DNA of 64,000 nucleotides from Gammaproteobacteria bacterium. Its GTDB lineage: Bacteria; Pseudomonadota; Gammaproteobacteria; Enterobacterales; Psychrobiaceae. The position numbers and the translations under genes are program-made. Shown here one piece after another: positions 43,575 through 50,688 of this stretch. Numbering within the stretch: position 1 is the stretch's first letter; each line of letters begins with the position of its first letter. The notes under the pieces were generated by a model. It was not told the DNA's origin, ran no database searches, and saw only the letters and a list, made by a program, of their open reading frames with translations. Location of the stretch: assembly GCA_013214965.1 (NCBI GenBank), contig JABSRU010000014.1:1-64000 (forward strand). Reading direction: 5' to 3'.

Positions 43575-43607
43575 GAATAAAGGAATAGTAGAAATGTTCC
43601 TTTATTC
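43575..43607. terminator. Hairpin after the E2 gene, shared with the converging small gene
   Basis: GAATAAAGGAA and TTCCTTTATTC form an 11-bp stem with an 11-base loop. It begins ten bases after the E2 stop and overlaps the stop codon of the converging gene at 43602. Confidence 0.6.
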
Positions 43608-43817
43608 AATATTGATTGCGCCAATGTATTCGTATTCAATCTGTTGACTAATCAATTCTGGTGGCAATGAGATTTCTAATACTGGCCGCTCTAAATAGAG
43701 CTTAATGACTCGTTGATTGGTCTTGGATAATCCAATACTAATACCAACGACACCGGGAGTTGATAGGGCAATCGTTTCAATCATTAATAATTTTTGCTCT
43801 AAAAAATCATTCATCAT
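43602..43817 (-). CDS. Small protein resembling the protease N-terminal domain
   Basis: A predicted 71-residue protein (MMNDFLEQKLLMIETIALST...), no signal peptide. Its segment GVVGISIGLSKTN ... YEYIGAINIE aligns with NAIGIGYKETN ... VEDIGVINAE in residues 31-89 of the protease encoded at 44763. It therefore looks like a free-standing copy of that domain, perhaps a modulator or inhibitor. The frame is open to 43859, but that start has no ribosome site and precedes a terminator-like hairpin; ATG 43817 or 43814 is preferred. Function unknown. Confidence 0.55.
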   Translation of the reverse strand: MMNDFLEQKLLMIETIALSTPGVVGISIGLSKTNQRVIKLYLERPVLEISLPPELISQQIEYEYIGAINIE

Positions 43818-43836
43818 ATGCTCGATTTTAAATAAA

Positions 43837-43860
43837 GATGGGCAGCTCTCGCTCCCCATC
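43837..43860 (-). terminator. Terminator-like hairpin after the 294-residue gene
   Basis: GATGGG and CCCATC, with inner AGC/GCT pairing, make a stem-loop whose minus-strand 3' side continues TTTATTT. It starts nine bases after the stop codon at 43869 and would separate the small downstream gene from its operon, or attenuate it. Confidence 0.55.
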
Positions 43861-43868
43861 TAGGTTAG

Positions 43869-44753
43869 TTAAGACACAATAATATGCGGAACACAGACCT
43901 TATTAGCGCCGGTGGAAAAATCTACTTTAGCAGCGGAACCTCCTCCTTGTGCTCTTACATACAGCTTGACCGAACACACCACAGCGACCCAATCATTTTT
44001 ACCCAGTAAAGCTGAATAGTTAGTGTATCGTGTATCATCCAAGCGTCGATTAAGGTTAACATTATCCTTATTAATATTGACCATATTAACCGATCTTAAT
44101 CCTTTCCAGTTATACTGGAAAACATTGGTTTGAGCCGATATTTTCACTTGAGAATTCTTACAGTTGTACCATTTATCATTGGCTTTAGCGATATAATAAC
44201 CTCTAAACACAAATCTTGGTTTAATGGCATAAAAGCGGCTTTGCGAAGGTCTAAACCAAAAGACCCAAGTTGCTTTACGCCAACGTGTCGCTCGGCCTCC
44301 GGTACAGCCCCAGCCCGAGCCAGTAGCATGAGTTCTAAGGTTTTTACAGGTACCGCCGCCAATAACAGCTTGCGCGTTTAGGTCGTTGTCTTGAGCTATC
44401 TCACCTGACCAAGACGGCGTAATTAATTGGGTGTCTTCGGGTAAAAAACCACTGTCTAAATCGAGTTCACTGGCGTCAAGTAACTCATGTGATTGTTCAG
44501 TCATCAATTGATCTAATGCATCAAATGCTTGCTCATCATCTGCGCAGGTTTGTTGCTCCATCGCAGATAATTTGTCGATATCTAATCCTAGAGCGCTCAA
44601 TGATGATTCATTGCAGGAGGTCTGACAGCTTGCATCATTGCTATCATCTTGTATGTCGACCATCGATTGCGCCATTTCTGCATCATTTTCAATTTGGAGC
44701 TCAGCAATCAATTGTTGATGTAAATCTTGTATTTCGGTTGGGATATTCATCAT
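43869..44753 (-). CDS. Bipartite acidic/basic protein, unknown function
   Basis: A 294-residue protein not recognised as any family. Residues 1-130 are strongly acidic, with only one Lys/Arg (Lys61), and contain Cys43, Cys47 and Cys70. Residues 131-294 begin IGGGTCKN and carry about 25 Lys/Arg against about six acidic residues, many Trp/Tyr/Phe (KATWVFWFRPSQSRFY), and Cys136, 150, 198, 260 and 287. No signal peptide is visible. The plan looks like an acidic propiece shielding a cationic domain. It follows the protease gene by nine bases. ATG 44753 or 44750 are both possible after AAGGAAATT. Confidence 0.6.
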   Translation of the reverse strand: MMNIPTEIQDLHQQLIAELQIENDAEMAQSMVDIQDDSNDASCQTSCNESSLSALGLDIDKLSAMEQQTCADDEQAFDALDQLMTEQSHELLDASELDLDSGFLPEDTQLITPSWSGEIAQDNDLNAQAVIGGGTCKNLRTHATGSGWGCTGGRATRWRKATWVFWFRPSQSRFYAIKPRFVFRGYYIAKANDKWYNCKNSQVKISAQTNVFQYNWKGLRSVNMVNINKDNVNLNRRLDDTRYTNYSALLGKNDWVAVVCSVKLYVRAQGGGSAAKVDFSTGANKVCVPHIIVS

Positions 44754-44762
44754 AATTTCCTT

Positions 44763-45695
44763 TTATTGGGTCAGTAAATCAACTTTTAATGCCATCATTA
44801 CGTTATGGATGTTATTAAAAATAGTGACTTGGCTTGAGCCTGCAAACAACAGGCCGACAGCGTTACGATTAGCACGATTTAAGAGCAATGAACCGGAATC
44901 TCCACCATTGGACATGTCTCTGGTCATAAATTGATTTTTGAAGTAAGCAATGCGTCCGGCGCCATAATTAACGGCCACCGTGCTGTCAATCGCGATGACT
45001 TTGTTGGCCGTTGTGCCCGTGGTACGGCCTGTTTTAATGACATCCATATTTAACGTTGCTTCTTGGCTGCCTTTTGGGATCCCTAAACGATGAATAGACC
45101 CCATGATCAGCCGTTGATCGAGTGGCTTGGCAATCGCGGCATCAACTAAGTTGTAGTTGGCTACACTGCCAAATTTTATCGGCACAAACTTGCTCAATTT
45201 AGCAATGCGGTCGCGCGGGCTTACGCCACCATCAACTCGGCCGGGTTGAATGATCGCATCACCAATCTTGGCGTTATTGCTATTGGCTAAAACATGATTA
45301 TTACTTAAGATGTAAAAGCGTCCGGGGTAACAGTTATCACGGACAATACCACCGAAGGTGCCAGCTGTTATTTTATAGTGACCAATACTGAATCCAGGTT
45401 TGGCTGGGCGCGTTTTTGCCGTATTAGGCTCGGCATTAATAACTCCGATATCTTCAACATCGGTTTTTATGCCATTAATCGTGTGAGGAACAACTTGGGT
45501 TTTAGCAAGAGCTTTCGTTGGTAGCTTCTGTTGCACAAACACCTTAATACAGAGTTCGTCGGTGACTTTATTGTTGGTTTCTTTGTAACCAATACCGATC
45601 GCATTAACATTCTCTAAACTAAATAGACTTATTTCGTTATCGTCTTTAACGTCCTGTATTTCATTAATTCGATCTTGGTCATCTTGTGAGTTCAT
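44763..45695 (-). CDS. Trypsin-fold serine protease (NAL1-like), no signal peptide
   Basis: A 310-residue protein with the chymotrypsin triad: His134 in ILSNNHVLAN, Asp185 in NLVDAAIAKP, and Ser267 in GGDSGSLLL. An N-terminal domain (about residues 25-90; VNAIGIGYKETN) precedes it; similar domains occur in plant NAL1-like and bacterial trypsin-fold proteins. I see no signal peptide or membrane segment, so it may act in the cytoplasm or leave by another route. ATG 45695 follows TGGAGA; the open frame extends to 45824. The putative propeptide domain is duplicated in the small gene at 43602. A sigma-54-like promoter lies about 100 bp upstream. Confidence 0.75.
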   Translation of the reverse strand: MNSQDDQDRINEIQDVKDDNEISLFSLENVNAIGIGYKETNNKVTDELCIKVFVQQKLPTKALAKTQVVPHTINGIKTDVEDIGVINAEPNTAKTRPAKPGFSIGHYKITAGTFGGIVRDNCYPGRFYILSNNHVLANSNNAKIGDAIIQPGRVDGGVSPRDRIAKLSKFVPIKFGSVANYNLVDAAIAKPLDQRLIMGSIHRLGIPKGSQEATLNMDVIKTGRTTGTTANKVIAIDSTVAVNYGAGRIAYFKNQFMTRDMSNGGDSGSLLLNRANRNAVGLLFAGSSQVTIFNNIHNVMMALKVDLLTQ

Positions 45696-45790
45696 TACAA
45701 TTCTCCATCTGTTATAAACAATGCGCAACCAAAGCCTGACACTTTTATTGCGGTTTTCCGCAGCGACTTTAAGCAGCGGGTATAACAGTA

Positions 45791-45808
45791 TTGAAAAATA
45801 CGTGCCAA
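45791..45808 (-). promoter_or_regulatory. Sigma-54-like promoter for the protease group
   Basis: On the minus strand, TTGGCACG then TATTTTTCAA. The -24 element TGGCAC is perfect and the spacing fits, but the -12 element is TTTC where TTGC is expected (one mismatch). The predicted start gives a leader of about 85 bases. The adjacent divergent gene encodes a sigma-54 activator. Confidence 0.5.
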
Positions 45809-45869
45809 AATTATTATTTAGCAATAACAGTAGGTTATTTTTTTGCGGTCGAAACAGCTATGTTATTGA

Positions 45870-45884
45870 CATGTTAATAACATG
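45870..45884. promoter_or_regulatory. 15-bp palindrome in the divergent promoter
   Basis: CATGTTAATAACATG is a perfect palindrome about one central A. It overlaps a TTGACA (45866-45871) that could be a -35 box for the activator gene. It is a candidate site for the activator's own regulation or an enhancer-like upstream site for the minus-strand promoter. Confidence 0.4.
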
Positions 45885-46031
45885 GCTAAAAATAAGTGAT
45901 CAAACACTGTGTGATCGTTCGAAATTTGTACTATCATGCTGTTATATGCAGATGATTATGTTTTAGTACTTAATTCAGGCTGAGCTTAACCGAGTACGAC
46001 TAAATCATCTCATTTGAATTAGGAGCATGAT

Positions 46032-47600
46032 ATGGAAAGTCAAACTTTACAGCATTCACCCGTTAACATTTCTTTGTTTAAAAATAGGCAGTTATTAACT
46101 TTAACCATTATTTTTCATCCAGATATTGATCGGATTGGTGAACAAGCAAAAACGACCGATAACAGCTTAGAGATCTCTCGACTGGGGCCGTTATTTTTTC
46201 AAAGTATTAATCAACGAAGACCCTTAGGGGATGTTTATGTCAGCCGTCAACCAATATTTATGACTAAGGTTGGCCAAGATTGGCAATTGGATGCAACGTC
46301 CAGTACAACCATTTTATCGAATGCTAAATCCCCGGATATTTCAACGTTGTTAATTACAAAAAAAATGATTCAAGAGCGATTTCTGATGACGTTATCGGGG
46401 CGTATTGTATTAATGTTTCACTTTACCCAAGGGGCTGGTTTCACTAGCGGTGCTAATCATGCCTTGTTAGGCGTTAGTGATAATATTCAATATGTCCGTT
46501 CGTTGATTTCAAATGTATCTCAATTAAAAGCCCCGGTGCTTATTCGGGGGGAAACAGGCACCGGCAAGGAGTTAATAGCAGAGGCCGTTCATCAGAATAG
46601 TTCCCGTCGTCAGCAAAAAATGATCAGTGTTAATATGGCCTCATTACCCCGTGAAATAGCCACTAGCGAGTTGTTTGGCAGTGTCAAGGGAGCCTTTACC
46701 GGGGCAACTAACCGCGCCGGGTTTTTTGGTCAAGCGGACAAAAGTAGTTTATTTTTAGATGAGATAGGGGAGGCATCATTGGAAGTGCAAGTGGCCTTAT
46801 TACGTAGTTTGGAATCCGGTGTCATTACTCCAGTAGGCAGTGAAAAGGAAGTGAGCTTAGATGTTAGGTTTATTGCGGCTACCGACTGTAATTTGGAACA
46901 ATCAATTGCTCAAGACAGTTTTAAAATGCCATTATTTCAGCGTTTGTCAGGACTAATCATTGAGGTTAAGCCACTGCGTGAGCGCCCAGAAGATATTGCG
47001 ATTATTTTAGTGAAATTTTTAATTGAAGAGTTAGGGAGCACTGGTCAACTAGATAAGTTAATCAACGATCAGAATAATTGCTACTATTGGGCATGGTTTT
47101 TTGCCCAATGTTGCAACTGCTCTTGGCCGGGTAATGTTCGCCAATTAAAGAACGTGTCTTTACAATTGAGTATGTTGTTGATGAATGTTCAAAATTTGAA
47201 TTTATTCGATTGGAATAAATTCATCGATAACCAATTACCCAAAAGTGTCAGTATGTCATGTGCATCGACGCAGCAACCTCAATCAGATGATGTGTGCAAA
47301 CAACCGAATCGTAAGCCTAAGGACATTTCCGATGACGAAATTTTTTCAGTGCTAGAATCACATCATTGGCAAATTAAGTTGGCCGCTGACTTTTTGCATA
47401 TATCTCGTGCTTCCTTGTATTTAAGAATGGACGCAAACCCTAATATCCGCCGGGTTGGTCATATTACCTCAAACGAATTAAGCTGTTCATTTGAAAAATT
47501 TGCGGGAAACATTGATCAAATGGTATCGGCGTTACGGGTATCAAAACCGGCCTTAAGAAGGCGACTTAATGAGATCGGACTATCAGCTGAACATGTCTAA
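46032..47600 (+). CDS. FHA-domain sigma-54 transcriptional activator
   Basis: A 522-residue enhancer-binding protein. Residues about 25-133 are FHA-like (EISRLGP, GDVYVSRQ), a phosphothreonine-binding module, in place of a receiver domain. The AAA+ core has Walker A GETGTGKE (173-180), the sigma-54 loop GAFTGA (220-225), Walker B LFLDEIGE (240-247) and WPGNVRQLK. Two Fis-type helix-turn-helix segments may end the protein (AADFLHISRASLYLRM and VSALRVSKPALRRRLNEIG). It would remodel sigma-54 RNA polymerase when the FHA domain recognises a phosphorylated partner, plausibly the downstream kinase. The kinase start overlaps its stop. Confidence 0.85.
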   Translation: MESQTLQHSPVNISLFKNRQLLTLTIIFHPDIDRIGEQAKTTDNSLEISRLGPLFFQSINQRRPLGDVYVSRQPIFMTKVGQDWQLDATSSTTILSNAKSPDISTLLITKKMIQERFLMTLSGRIVLMFHFTQGAGFTSGANHALLGVSDNIQYVRSLISNVSQLKAPVLIRGETGTGKELIAEAVHQNSSRRQQKMISVNMASLPREIATSELFGSVKGAFTGATNRAGFFGQADKSSLFLDEIGEASLEVQVALLRSLESGVITPVGSEKEVSLDVRFIAATDCNLEQSIAQDSFKMPLFQRLSGLIIEVKPLRERPEDIAIILVKFLIEELGSTGQLDKLINDQNNCYYWAWFFAQCCNCSWPGNVRQLKNVSLQLSMLLMNVQNLNLFDWNKFIDNQLPKSVSMSCASTQQPQSDDVCKQPNRKPKDISDDEIFSVLESHHWQIKLAADFLHISRASLYLRMDANPNIRRVGHITSNELSCSFEKFAGNIDQMVSALRVSKPALRRRLNEIGLSAEHV

Positions 47601-50091
47601 CTTACCAAAATATATTGGTCATTACCGTGTCGATTCAGTGATTGCGGCGGGCAGTTGTGGCAAGGTGTTAAAAGCTTACGACAATCGGCTTAATCGTTGG
47701 GTTGCTATTAAATGTTTATATGCTTTTAAAGAGCAAAATATTGAGAATGAGGCCAGAATACTGGCTGGCTTAAATCACCCCAATATTGTTAGCGTTTATG
47801 AACTCCTGATTGACGAACCGAATCAGTATGGTGCATTGGTGATGGAGTATTTACCCGCTGATAATTTGAGTAAACGTTTGTTGGATAAGCAACCGTTGCC
47901 ATTGATTGTTGCTTTAAAGTATTGTCTGGAAATTGCACAGGGGCTCGATGCTGCCCACCAAGTCGGTATTATTCATCGTGATTTAAAACCGGACAACATT
48001 TTTATTGATTGTCATGACCATTTAAAGATCGGTGATTTTGGGATTGCTAAGTCGGGAGAGAAAGTCGATGATAAAAAGATGTTTGGCAGTGTCTCTTGTT
48101 GCAGTCCTGAGCAAGCATTAGGTAAGGAGCTAACGATACAAAGTGACTTGTTCTCTTTAGGATTGTTATTATACCAGATGTTAACGGGCCATCACCCGTT
48201 TGAACGGGGTGATGGCGATCAGCAAACGCTTAAGCGATTGGTTGAGCAACCTTTTCCCCCGATAGCGCTCAATAATGATCTAGTGAATCAATTATTAACG
48301 AGATTACTCGCTAAAACACCGACTAAGCGTTACCAATCTTCAGGGGGAGTGATCGCAAAAATAGAACAAATATTAGGGGTTGAATACAGTAAATATAGTG
48401 CTCCAACAATTACCCATGATAATCCGATGTTGCTCAATTTTAGACAAGCTCAGCAGTTAAGAAACAAAAATATCGGCCTCCTTATTGTTTTCAGTATTAT
48501 AATGGTTTCTGTATTAGTGACGATAAATTTATGGCCAAAACCTCAAAAATATATCGCAATACTCAAGCCGATTGTTGTTAATCAATCTACTAATTATGAT
48601 ATTCCTTTAATTAAATCAGCAATTTATGATGCAGCAACGGTGGCATTAAATCAAATGGATCATCACCGGTTAGTGGCTGCTGACGAAGTGAAATCCTTAA
48701 CCCATTCTTCCGATAATATCGCTAAAATATTAAAAATCACTGCGGCAGATGAAGTACTGATGATGGAATTAGGTTGTAAAGATACAGTCTGTGCCATTAC
48801 TTTCAGTCGTTGGCATGGCAGCCCTACAACGCTGATTACTCAACAAACGATTAAAATACCAACCGATCAATTGCTGTTTGTTTCTGATTATGTCAAAAAT
48901 TATTTATTAACATTTTATCAAGAAAATAAACGCCTAAATAGCCCTGTTGAATTAATCAGTGCCATTAATTATCGAACACTGTTAACGATAAAAAATGATT
49001 TTGAATTACGCAGAATAACCACAGAGCAAATGATAGCCCAATTGATTGAGCTTAATGATCTTAAATGTCGTTACACGATGATCTGTAAACTATTGTTGGA
49101 TGCCTATTTGCGTAAGCACAATATAGATCGCGATCCCAAATGGCTAGTACTTGCTAACCAACTTATTATGCGGGCAAAATCGCGTAGTTCGAGGATGTTT
49201 TTTCAGTCCGCTGCGGTTGAAATTGCATTAGTGCAGCGAGAATACGAAAAAGCCGGTCATCTGCTGGATCAGCTCGAACACAATAATTACGCCGATGATA
49301 CCGTGATGTCATTAAGAGCACGCTGGTATTTTGCTCAGGGTTTCGATGCGAAAGGCCGTTCATCTATGGCGACTCTTATCTTGCAGCGACCTGCTGCCCA
49401 TCATAAATTTAATTATGCGTTGATGTTATATTTTTCAGGTCAATATCAGCAGTCATTAGGGTTGTTGGAGCAAATTTTATCAGACATTGATGATTTTATT
49501 CCAGCCATTGAACTCAAAGCTGATTTATTGCTCTTAAGTGGCCAATGGCAACAGGTGATTGTTATTTATAATCATTTGATTGCATTAGATGTTGGCAGTA
49601 ATCCTGGTACTCAGAGCAACATTGGTTTGGCGTATTTAATGGTTAAGCTACCCTTAAAAGCGTTAAAGCATTTTGAATTAGCGGCGCAAATGGCTAAAAA
49701 CAATCCTAGCGTCATCATCAATTTAGCGGATGGTCAGTTGCTGACTGGAAGAAACATCTTGGCCAGAAGAAATTATCAGCGAGTGGTCGAGTTAGTCAAA
49801 TTAGTCGAAGACAAATCCAACGATGATTATCTTGCTTTGGCCATTGCTTATGCTCAATTAGGACGGCCGACGATGGCGACTAATGAATTATTGAATGTAC
49901 TGAAGTCGAACATTAACGATCCTTTTGTGCTTTACTCCATTGGCTTAGTTTATTTGCGCAGTAATGATATTGATACGGCGATTGATTATTTAAATCAATC
50001 TTTGGCAGCTGGCTTGTCGATTAATTGGTTTCAGCTGCCTTGGTTTGATGTTTTATTAGATAACAAGAAGTTTAATCCTCTCAAAGTCTAA
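47593..50091 (+). CDS. Membrane Ser/Thr protein kinase with TPR-like C-terminal region
   Basis: A 832-residue kinase of the Hanks type. It has a glycine loop AAGSCGKVLKA, VAIK Lys40, HRDLKPDN (128-135), DFG (148-150), and the SPEQ motif in the activation segment. One transmembrane helix (about 294-314, IGLLIVFSIIMVSVLVTINL) separates it from a large region with TPR-like repeats (PGTQSNIGLAYLMVKLPLKALKHF and NDPFVLYSIGLVYLRSNDIDTAIDYL, split) at about 650-820, probably extracytoplasmic. I chose ATG 47593, overlapping the activator stop by eight bases; ATG 47569 is also open. It probably signals through the FHA activator. Confidence 0.88.
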   Translation: MSNLPKYIGHYRVDSVIAAGSCGKVLKAYDNRLNRWVAIKCLYAFKEQNIENEARILAGLNHPNIVSVYELLIDEPNQYGALVMEYLPADNLSKRLLDKQPLPLIVALKYCLEIAQGLDAAHQVGIIHRDLKPDNIFIDCHDHLKIGDFGIAKSGEKVDDKKMFGSVSCCSPEQALGKELTIQSDLFSLGLLLYQMLTGHHPFERGDGDQQTLKRLVEQPFPPIALNNDLVNQLLTRLLAKTPTKRYQSSGGVIAKIEQILGVEYSKYSAPTITHDNPMLLNFRQAQQLRNKNIGLLIVFSIIMVSVLVTINLWPKPQKYIAILKPIVVNQSTNYDIPLIKSAIYDAATVALNQMDHHRLVAADEVKSLTHSSDNIAKILKITAADEVLMMELGCKDTVCAITFSRWHGSPTTLITQQTIKIPTDQLLFVSDYVKNYLLTFYQENKRLNSPVELISAINYRTLLTIKNDFELRRITTEQMIAQLIELNDLKCRYTMICKLLLDAYLRKHNIDRDPKWLVLANQLIMRAKSRSSRMFFQSAAVEIALVQREYEKAGHLLDQLEHNNYADDTVMSLRARWYFAQGFDAKGRSSMATLILQRPAAHHKFNYALMLYFSGQYQQSLGLLEQILSDIDDFIPAIELKADLLLLSGQWQQVIVIYNHLIALDVGSNPGTQSNIGLAYLMVKLPLKALKHFELAAQMAKNNPSVIINLADGQLLTGRNILARRNYQRVVELVKLVEDKSNDDYLALAIAYAQLGRPTMATNELLNVLKSNINDPFVLYSIGLVYLRSNDIDTAIDYLNQSLAAGLSINWFQLPWFDVLLDNKKFNPLKV

Positions 50092-50614
50092 TCCAATCTC
50101 GAGCTATAATGAACGGGTCATTGGAGTAATAGTTATTACCGCTACTATCGGTAATAACAAAACGGAATCCCACTTGGTTACCATCATTTTTTAGATAAAT
50201 TCCTTGGGGTTTGTGGGCCCAAAAATCAGACGAACTAATGGCTAAAAATAAATCACCATTGTTTAATATTTCACTGGTGACAGCCGCCATATTTTTAATG
50301 GTATTGTTGGCCGTGACAAATAATATGCCAGCAAAGTGTTGTCGCTTATTTACTTGGCTTGGTCTTGCGAAATACAGGGGTTCCAATGTGCTGACAATCG
50401 TTATATTGAGTCTGGCTTGGGAGTCTGGGTTTTCCCGTTCTAAAATGGCCATAATACCATCAATTTTGTTTTGGTCGTAACTCATTGTCCAGGTGTCGGG
50501 GTCATGTTTATCGATAATAGTTAAGGTAATATAAGAAGGCTGAACGTCATTGGTATCTCTGGTATCAATGGTTAATTGGTTGATTAATTTAGTCTCGATA
50601 TGTGTACTCATCAT
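50081..50614 (-). CDS. 177-residue protein of unknown function
   Basis: A beta-rich sequence (YITLTIIDKHDPDTWTMSYD, RLNITIVSTLEPLYFARPSQ, GFRFVITDSSGNNYYSNDPF) with no signal peptide, membrane segment or recognised motif. It converges with the kinase gene, overlapping by 11 bases. It has its own TGGCAC box 57-74 bases upstream, like the protease group, so it is likely part of the same regulon. ATG 50611 would give a better-spaced AGGA site than 50614. Confidence 0.6.
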   Translation of the reverse strand: MMSTHIETKLINQLTIDTRDTNDVQPSYITLTIIDKHDPDTWTMSYDQNKIDGIMAILERENPDSQARLNITIVSTLEPLYFARPSQVNKRQHFAGILFVTANNTIKNMAAVTSEILNNGDLFLAISSSDFWAHKPQGIYLKNDGNQVGFRFVITDSSGNNYYSNDPFIIARDWIRL

Positions 50615-50670
50615 TTTGTCCTTTTGTTATTTCAATAAGATGAAGTTAGTTGTACAAACTTTACTAAGCT

Positions 50671-50688
50671 ATTCAATGATAGTGCCAA
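50671..50688 (-). promoter_or_regulatory. Sigma-54-like promoter for the 177-residue gene
   Basis: On the minus strand, TTGGCACT then ATCATTGAAT. TGGCAC is perfect and the spacing to the -12 region is right, but TTGA replaces TTGC (one mismatch). Flanking TTTTGGCAC matches the box upstream of the protease gene. Confidence 0.5.

What the first reader, a model, noticed from the sequence alone, without database searches (positions are those of the whole stretch)
43602..50688. Candidate self-contained kinase, FHA/sigma-54, protease system
A membrane Ser/Thr kinase overlaps a sigma-54 activator whose sensor is an FHA-like phosphothreonine reader. Divergently lie a trypsin-fold protease with full triad, a charge-split proprotein-like gene, and a free copy of the protease's N-terminal domain; a 177-residue unknown gene is on the other flank. 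Both minus-strand units have matching TGGCAC boxes. My model: an envelope signal activates the kinase, FHA binding switches the activator, and sigma-54 transcription yields a protease with its substrate and inhibitor. Kinase/FHA/EBP pairs are known in other bacteria; the linked protease and charge-split protein are not ones I recognise.
Basis: partly seen in the sequence, partly recalled or inferred. Interest (0 to 1): 0.75.

Follow-up and report, generated by a model that had tools for sequence, protein, structure and literature searches.

The report
Kinase-controlled island making linked protease
A seven-kilobase gene island, absent from the bacterium's close relatives but found whole in two other marine genera, pairs a membrane protein kinase and its gene activator with a protease, a new paired protein and two small partners, and carries matching DNA switches in front of each set of output genes.

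Summary
Six genes (43602-50614) form one insertion between bkdC and a methyltransferase gene: seven genus-mates have those two genes adjacent or nearly so, and no genus-mate searched has the protease or p294. The same six genes occur, rearranged, in Bowmanella denitrificans and Shewanella marina. Both minus-strand units, and every output unit in those two genomes, carry an ACATGTCA-core dyad 55-78 bp (about one-turn steps) upstream of a TGGCAC/T box. A fourth genome with a relative of the activator has the same dyad and a near-consensus sigma-54 promoter before RebB-like genes. So a kinase-EBP pair driving linked outputs through sigma-54 is well supported by comparison, and the output set is exchangeable. 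Corrections: the -12 elements here are non-consensus (TTTC, TTGA); the activator's FHA domain fits by pattern only; the protease+p294 pair also occurs without the kinase, beside other regulators, so it is a separable module. p85 is related to the protease's N-domain (hhalign E 5e-8). p294 has a conserved acidic helical half and a mostly basic jelly-roll half; that the protease cuts it, and that p85 restrains the protease, are inferences.

The parts
43602..43859 (-). p85 (71 aa from the ATG at 43817): stand-alone copy of the protease's N-terminal NAL1_N-like domain
   Evidence: hhalign of 10 such proteins against 8 protease N-domains E 4.7e-8, prob 94.9; counterparts after p294 in L094, L095, L096, L098, L099, L101
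43869..44753 (-). p294: acidic helical N-half (4-88), conserved linker LLPxDxxxLTPSW, jelly-roll C-half (140-293); no known family
   Evidence: 11 loci found in 84,980 genomes
44763..45695 (-). NAL1-type trypsin-fold serine protease, 310 aa, no signal peptide apparent; triad H134 D185 S267
   Evidence: 26 of 369 class genomes have a relative
45792..45807 (-). -24 promoter box TGGCACGTATTTTTCA of the protease unit
   Evidence: counterpart in Bowmanella TGGCACGTTTCCTTCA and S. marina TGGCACGATTTATTCA
45861..45874 (-). candidate activator site ACATGTCAATAACA, 67 bp (start to start) upstream of the -24 box
46032..47600 (+). sigma-54 activator (EBP), 522 aa: FHA-like N-domain (unproven), AAA+ with GAFTGA, Fis-type HTH plus a possible second C-terminal HTH
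47569..50091 (+). Ser/Thr protein kinase, 840 aa: cytoplasmic kinase, one TM, C-terminal TPR region
   Evidence: orthologues 35 and 39% identical
50081..50614 (-). p177, DP-EP-like small protein convergent with the kinase; C-terminal YYSNDPFII motif
50672..50687 (-). -24 promoter box TGGCACTATCATTGAA of p177
   Evidence: S. marina counterpart TGGCATGGCGTTTGAA

Best explanation
The segment is an inserted, self-regulated island. A membrane Ser/Thr kinase (cytoplasmic kinase, TM, extracytoplasmic TPR region) senses a signal and switches the partner EBP, probably through the EBP's FHA-like N-domain. The EBP binds ACATGTCA-n-TGACA dyads and drives RNA polymerase-sigma-54 from TGGCAC-type promoters of the output units: the protease-p294-p85 operon and p177. 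The protease then acts with or on p294, most simply by trimming its acidic helical half from its basic jelly-roll half, and p85, a free copy of the protease's own N-domain, modulates the protease. Shown by comparison: gene content, insertion, co-inheritance, dyad and box at output units, separability of output and regulator. Inferred: kinase-to-EBP signalling, FHA recognition, direction of the signal, that the EBP is what binds the dyads, proteolysis of p294, role of p85 and p177.
For: Same six genes in Bowmanella denitrificans (L094) and Shewanella marina (L095) in different orders. Empty or near-empty bkdC-methyltransferase site in seven genus-mates; no protease or p294 in nine genus-mates. 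Dyad core and TGGCAC/T box upstream of all six output units of three genomes; ACATGTCA-to-box distances 55, 67, 67, 67, 77 (and 78) bp, i.e. about 11-bp steps. The composite is rare genome-wide: 2 of 3 hits in the home genome, 2 of 3 in S. marina, 1 of 3 in Bowmanella and the single hit in G734 are such promoters. G734 has an EBP 39% identical, a kinase 27%, and two dyads (79 and 100 bp) before TGGCACGTAAGATGCA of a RebB-like operon. RpoN present. Protease-p294 adjacent in every untruncated locus but one; charge split conserved; p85 homologous to protease N-domain.
Against: -12 elements of the island promoters lack GC (TTTC, CTTC, ATTC, TTGA). FHA not detected statistically. Protease-p294 lives without this kinase/EBP in seven other loci, so nothing requires the kinase for its function. 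In L047, L048, L049 and L051 the p85-like partner begins with a signal-peptide-like stretch although the protease mostly does not, which argues against a simple inhibitor there. No expression or biochemical data.
Confidence: 0.6

Rival explanations
1. The protease-p294-p85 set is an independent module, and its place beside the kinase/EBP is only one of several alternative regulators captured by it; the regulators carry no mechanistic information about the protease.
For: Protease-p294 beside a MalT-like LuxR regulator (L096, L098), a SARP-NACHT protein (L100), a GAF-type EBP (L099), or no obvious regulator (L103); NAL1-type proteases are common without p294.
Against: In all three genomes with this EBP and a protease-p294 pair, the same dyad lies before the protease unit at the same 67-bp distance, so the link is at DNA-site level here.
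Confidence: 0.25
2. The TGGCAC boxes are not sigma-54 promoters; the activator or another factor recognises them and transcription uses another sigma factor.
For: -12 GC missing in all six island promoters.
Against: Activator has an intact GAFTGA loop (sequence); TGGCACG at fixed helical phase to the dyad; near-consensus -12 in G734 (TGGCACGTAAGATGCA) with the same dyad, and TGGCACAATATTCGCT before the protease beside the GAF-EBP of L099.
Confidence: 0.12
3. p294 is not a protease substrate but an adhesin- or lectin-like jelly-roll fibre (helical stalk plus head), and the protease acts on foreign or other proteins.
For: Model: helical hairpin plus jelly roll; top VIA matches are carbohydrate-binding modules and lectins, Z up to 9.1; Foldseek best hit 8okh, a predation-linked secreted protein; phage and collagen-like fibre proteins in BFVD.
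Against: Z near the level unrelated models reach; no signal peptide apparent; head similarity shows no function; close adjacency to the protease.
Confidence: 0.3

Closest known systems
FHA-domain sigma-54 activators and Ser/Thr kinases of Myxococcus xanthus (Jelsbak, Givskov and Kaiser 2005, as cited in PMC12288465; content recalled, not read)
   Same: Sigma-54 AAA+ activator proposed to be read-out of Ser/Thr kinase signalling
   Different: FHA here only pattern-level; here kinase, activator and output genes form one small inserted island with matching sites
NAL1-type serine proteases (Pfam NAL1_N + trypsin fold; rice and maize NAL1 are the named members)
   Same: N-domain plus trypsin fold with complete triad; bacterial relatives not rare
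   Different: Paired with p294 and a free N-domain copy; under sigma-54-type control
FHA-protein plus TPR-kinase pairs of other members of the same order (L080-L083)
   Same: Kinase 25-27% identical over most of its length; a small gene with a DPxI end beside the kinase in L081-L083
   Different: Their partner is a 330-350 aa protein with a clear FHA (1e-14 to 1e-15 in the two scanned) and no AAA+ domain
reb (R-body) gene clusters
   Same: In G734 the related kinase/EBP pair encloses RebB-like genes behind the same dyad and promoter
   Different: RebB match is below the curated cut-off; the P. aeruginosa reb cluster is controlled by other regulators, RcgA and FecI2 (PMC8322103)

Membership tests
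Sigma-54 activators (bacterial EBPs) | AAA+ sigma-54 interaction domain with GAFTGA, Walker A and B | tested here: met
   Sigma54_activat 2.3e-54; motifs read in the sequence
Sigma-54 activators (bacterial EBPs) | Fis-type DNA-binding HTH | tested here: met
   HTH_8 5.6e-7, above cut-off
FHA-domain EBPs | FHA domain in the N-terminal sensor region | tested here: inconclusive
   No Pfam hit in 3 orthologues; hhalign against an FHA set not significant but in register at the SR motif; R50, S71, R72 invariant in 4 homologues, histidine of SRxH replaced by proline
Hanks-type membrane Ser/Thr kinases | Kinase fold with catalytic Lys, HRD and DFG; transmembrane segment | tested here: met
   Pkinase 1.1e-46; VAIK, HRDLKPDN, DFG in sequence; TM peak 2.59 at 302
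Sigma-54 promoters | -24 GG element TGGCAC | tested here: met
   Exact in both window promoters
Sigma-54 promoters | -12 GC element (TTGC) at the fixed distance | tested here: not met
   TTTC and TTGA in the window; GC present in G734 and L099 counterparts
NAL1-type proteases | NAL1_N domain followed by trypsin fold | tested here: inconclusive
   NAL1_N 6.5e-6 at 26.2 bits (cut-off 27), Trypsin_2 0.0026 at 19 bits (cut-off 27.6): both significant, both under the curated cut-off
NAL1-type proteases | Complete H-D-S triad | tested here: met
   H134, D185, S267 invariant in 13 homologues
DP-EP family (PF08985) | Score above the family cut-off | tested here: not met
   19.8 bits against 25; shared YYSxDPxI end with other kinase-side genes, hhalign E 8e-4 over 26 columns
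R-body (Reb) systems | RebB-family genes in the window's genome | tested here: inconclusive
   No hit, but the search rang nowhere, including G734

The most novel reading that the evidence does not exclude
A previously undescribed class of mobile phospho-signalling island: a kinase plus FHA-like sigma-54 activator with a fixed operator (ACATGTCA-n-TGACA at helical steps before TGGCAC) that is fitted with exchangeable effector cassettes (protease/p294/p85 in three genera, RebB-like genes in another), in which p294 is a new family of protease-activated effector and p85 a diffusible copy of the protease's own regulatory domain.
Probability: 0.35. Interest if true: 0.75.

Novelty: new variant of a known kind. 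Interest (0 to 1): 0.58.

Why it matters
If right, one seven-kilobase segment holds sensor, switch, operator and output, so the logic of Ser/Thr-kinase control of sigma-54 transcription can be tested in a laboratory strain by moving one fragment. It also names a rare, unnamed protein family (p294) tied to NAL1-type proteases, whose bacterial roles are unknown to me, and shows the same protease-p294 pair beside at least four different kinds of regulator.

Tried and rejected
FHA by Pfam, by profile search of the PDB and by profile-profile comparison: no significant result. p177 and EBP N-domain against PDB sequences: nothing. Relatives of the EBP N-domain: none beyond G734 in 395 order genomes; four weak class hits are partial matches, several in broken frames, judged chance. 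Plasmid search with the protease: 13 diverged hits, neighbourhoods not read; with the EBP: generic EBPs; of three regions opened, two carry no annotation and one pairs the EBP with a histidine kinase. First p294 model with 4 sequences was poor; the 12-sequence model is better but fold matches stay at the level of a common jelly roll; gasdermin-like pore formers did not appear in the list, which proves nothing. No tRNA, convincing terminal repeats or recombinase gene at the island ends. RebB family search in whole genomes was uninformative. Papers on DP-EP: none held. A search for papers on FHA-EBP with kinase and sigma-54 gave nothing on this arrangement.

Full report
What is there. Six ORFs lie at 43602-50614: minus strand p85, p294 and protease; plus strand EBP and kinase (32-bp overlap); minus strand p177, whose end overlaps the kinase end. 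Families: the EBP is a complete sigma-54 activator, the kinase a Hanks-type membrane kinase with TPRs, the protease a NAL1-type trypsin fold; p294 has no family; p177 has a weak DP-EP match.

It is an insertion. In seven members of the same genus bkdC (E2) is followed by the methyltransferase gene directly or after one or two unrelated genes, and in five of these dnaQ follows next in the stretch read; none has the six genes there. No protease relative was found in nine genus-mates and no p294 in any of 248 relatives other than the home genome. No recombinase, tRNA or convincing terminal repeats mark the ends.

It is conserved as a set. A scan of 84,980 genomes with the p294 profile gave only eleven loci. 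Bowmanella denitrificans JL63 and Shewanella marina JCM 15074 hold the whole set: protease 61 and 66%, p294 52 and 55%, EBP 48 and 46%, kinase 35 and 39%, p177 35 and 37% identity, plus p85. Order differs: in Bowmanella protease-p294-p85-p177 runs toward kinase and EBP; in S. marina p177 faces the kinase, and EBP diverges from an extra unit (ORF 7258), with protease-p294-p85 beyond. Rearrangement with retention of all six genes in three genera argues for a functional set.

The switch sites. Every output unit of the three genomes (protease unit three times, p177 twice, ORF 7258; Bowmanella p177 lies inside the protease unit) has the core ACATGTCA or its complement upstream of a TGGCAC/T box. 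Start-to-start distances of ACATGTCA are 67 (window, Bowmanella, S. marina protease units; Bowmanella has a second copy at 78), 77 (window p177) and 55 (ORF 7258): steps of about one helical turn. Around the core most sites read as a dyad, TGTCA-n-TGACA or close to it. S. marina p177 has the core as two inverted partial copies further apart. The composite ACATGTCA-N45..72-TGGCAY occurs three times in the home genome, two of them these promoters; the reversed control gives none in three of four genomes and three in the fourth. The third home-genome hit lies before a secreted 235-aa protein with box TGGCACAGTCTCTGCT and may be a further target.

An independent test. In G734, another member of the order, the only other relative of the EBP's N-domain found in 395 genomes belongs to an EBP 39% identical with a kinase 27% identical downstream. 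No protease or p294 lies in the stretch read. Between the two genes lies a run of RebB-like small proteins (RebB 0.0024, below cut-off), and before it two copies of GGTGACATGTCA at 100 and 79 bp from TGGCACGTAAGATGCA, whose -12 element has the GC. So the operator goes with the activator, the promoter is of sigma-54 type, and the output is exchangeable. RpoN is encoded in the home genome. The window's own -12 elements (TTTC and TTGA) are a real departure from consensus and are left unexplained.

The protease module is separable. In L096, L098, L099, L100, L101, L102 and L103 protease and p294 are adjacent (p85-like gene behind in L096, L098, L099 and L101) without this kinase and EBP; upstream are a MalT-like regulator (L096, L098), a SARP-NACHT protein (L100) or a GAF-type EBP with its own TGGCACAATATTCGCT box (L099); L101 and L102 begin too close to the contig end to tell, and L103 shows no obvious one (the MalT, SARP and GAF readings are from sequence and knowledge of the families, NACHT from Pfam). 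NAL1-type proteases with a free N-domain gene behind them but no p294 also occur (L036, L047, L048, L051).

The parts' roles. p85 is homologous to the protease N-domain (hhalign prob 94.9, E 4.7e-8). p294 keeps an acidic first 112 residues (net -9 to -26) and, in 11 of 12 members, a basic remainder (+5 to +17), a conserved linker, and in the 12-sequence model (pLDDT 73.9) a helical hairpin followed by a jelly roll. The jelly roll resembles carbohydrate-binding modules, lectins and Bdellovibrio Bd1399 (8okh) at levels that do not show function. I favour processing of p294 by the protease (about 0.4) over a pure adhesin role (about 0.3). p177 shares its YYSxDPxI end with small genes beside related kinases, so it probably belongs to the kinase rather than to the protease.

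FHA. The EBP N-domain keeps R50, S71 and R72 and the LxDxxxSR pattern in four homologues, which is what an FHA phosphopeptide site would need (established knowledge of FHA domains), and related kinases sit beside bona fide FHA proteins. But no search reaches significance, and SRxH reads SRxP. Verdict: likely, unproven.

Verdict. Observation confirmed, interpretation partly supported. A new variant of a known kind (kinase/EBP control of sigma-54 promoters) with an unusual, rare output and strong comparative evidence for the operator.

Noticed in passing
L126:13642-16008 (G734): Run of RebB-like small proteins between a related EBP and kinase, behind the same operator and a near-consensus sigma-54 promoter; possible new regulator type for R-body-like genes.
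   Followed up: partly
L104:8820-10891 (Kocuria coralli): A diverged p294 (31%) directly follows a patatin-like phospholipase instead of a protease; its C-half is not basic.
   Followed up: partly
L165 (G000:C64:59545-59615, minus): Third genome-wide copy of the dyad core plus TGGCAC composite, before a secreted 235-aa protein with box TGGCACAGTCTCTGCT; possible extra regulon member outside the island.
   Followed up: partly
L095:7258-8667: Two S. marina genes (326 aa without a Pfam match, and 110 aa not scanned) behind the same operator and box as the protease unit: extra island output.
   Followed up: partly
L047:5416-5709, L048:10331-10618, L049:8524-8856, L051:8995-9285: Free NAL1_N-like domain with a signal-peptide-like start encoded right behind a NAL1-type protease (in L049 a short way downstream); widespread unexplained pair.
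   Followed up: partly
L081-L084, L090, L091, L129, window 50081-50614: Small genes beside kinases or TPR proteins end in a DP-containing motif (mostly DPxI) although otherwise dissimilar; two of them (L084, L091) have a C-terminal hydrophobic tail.
   Followed up: partly
L036:10659-13194: A caspase-like protein and an upstream small gene lie near a NAL1-type protease and its free N-domain; looks like a conflict-system neighbourhood (from memory of such families).
   Followed up: no
L081:5713-6288: Phage tail-collar-like protein (by eye) in a run of genes beside an FHA/kinase pair.
   Followed up: no
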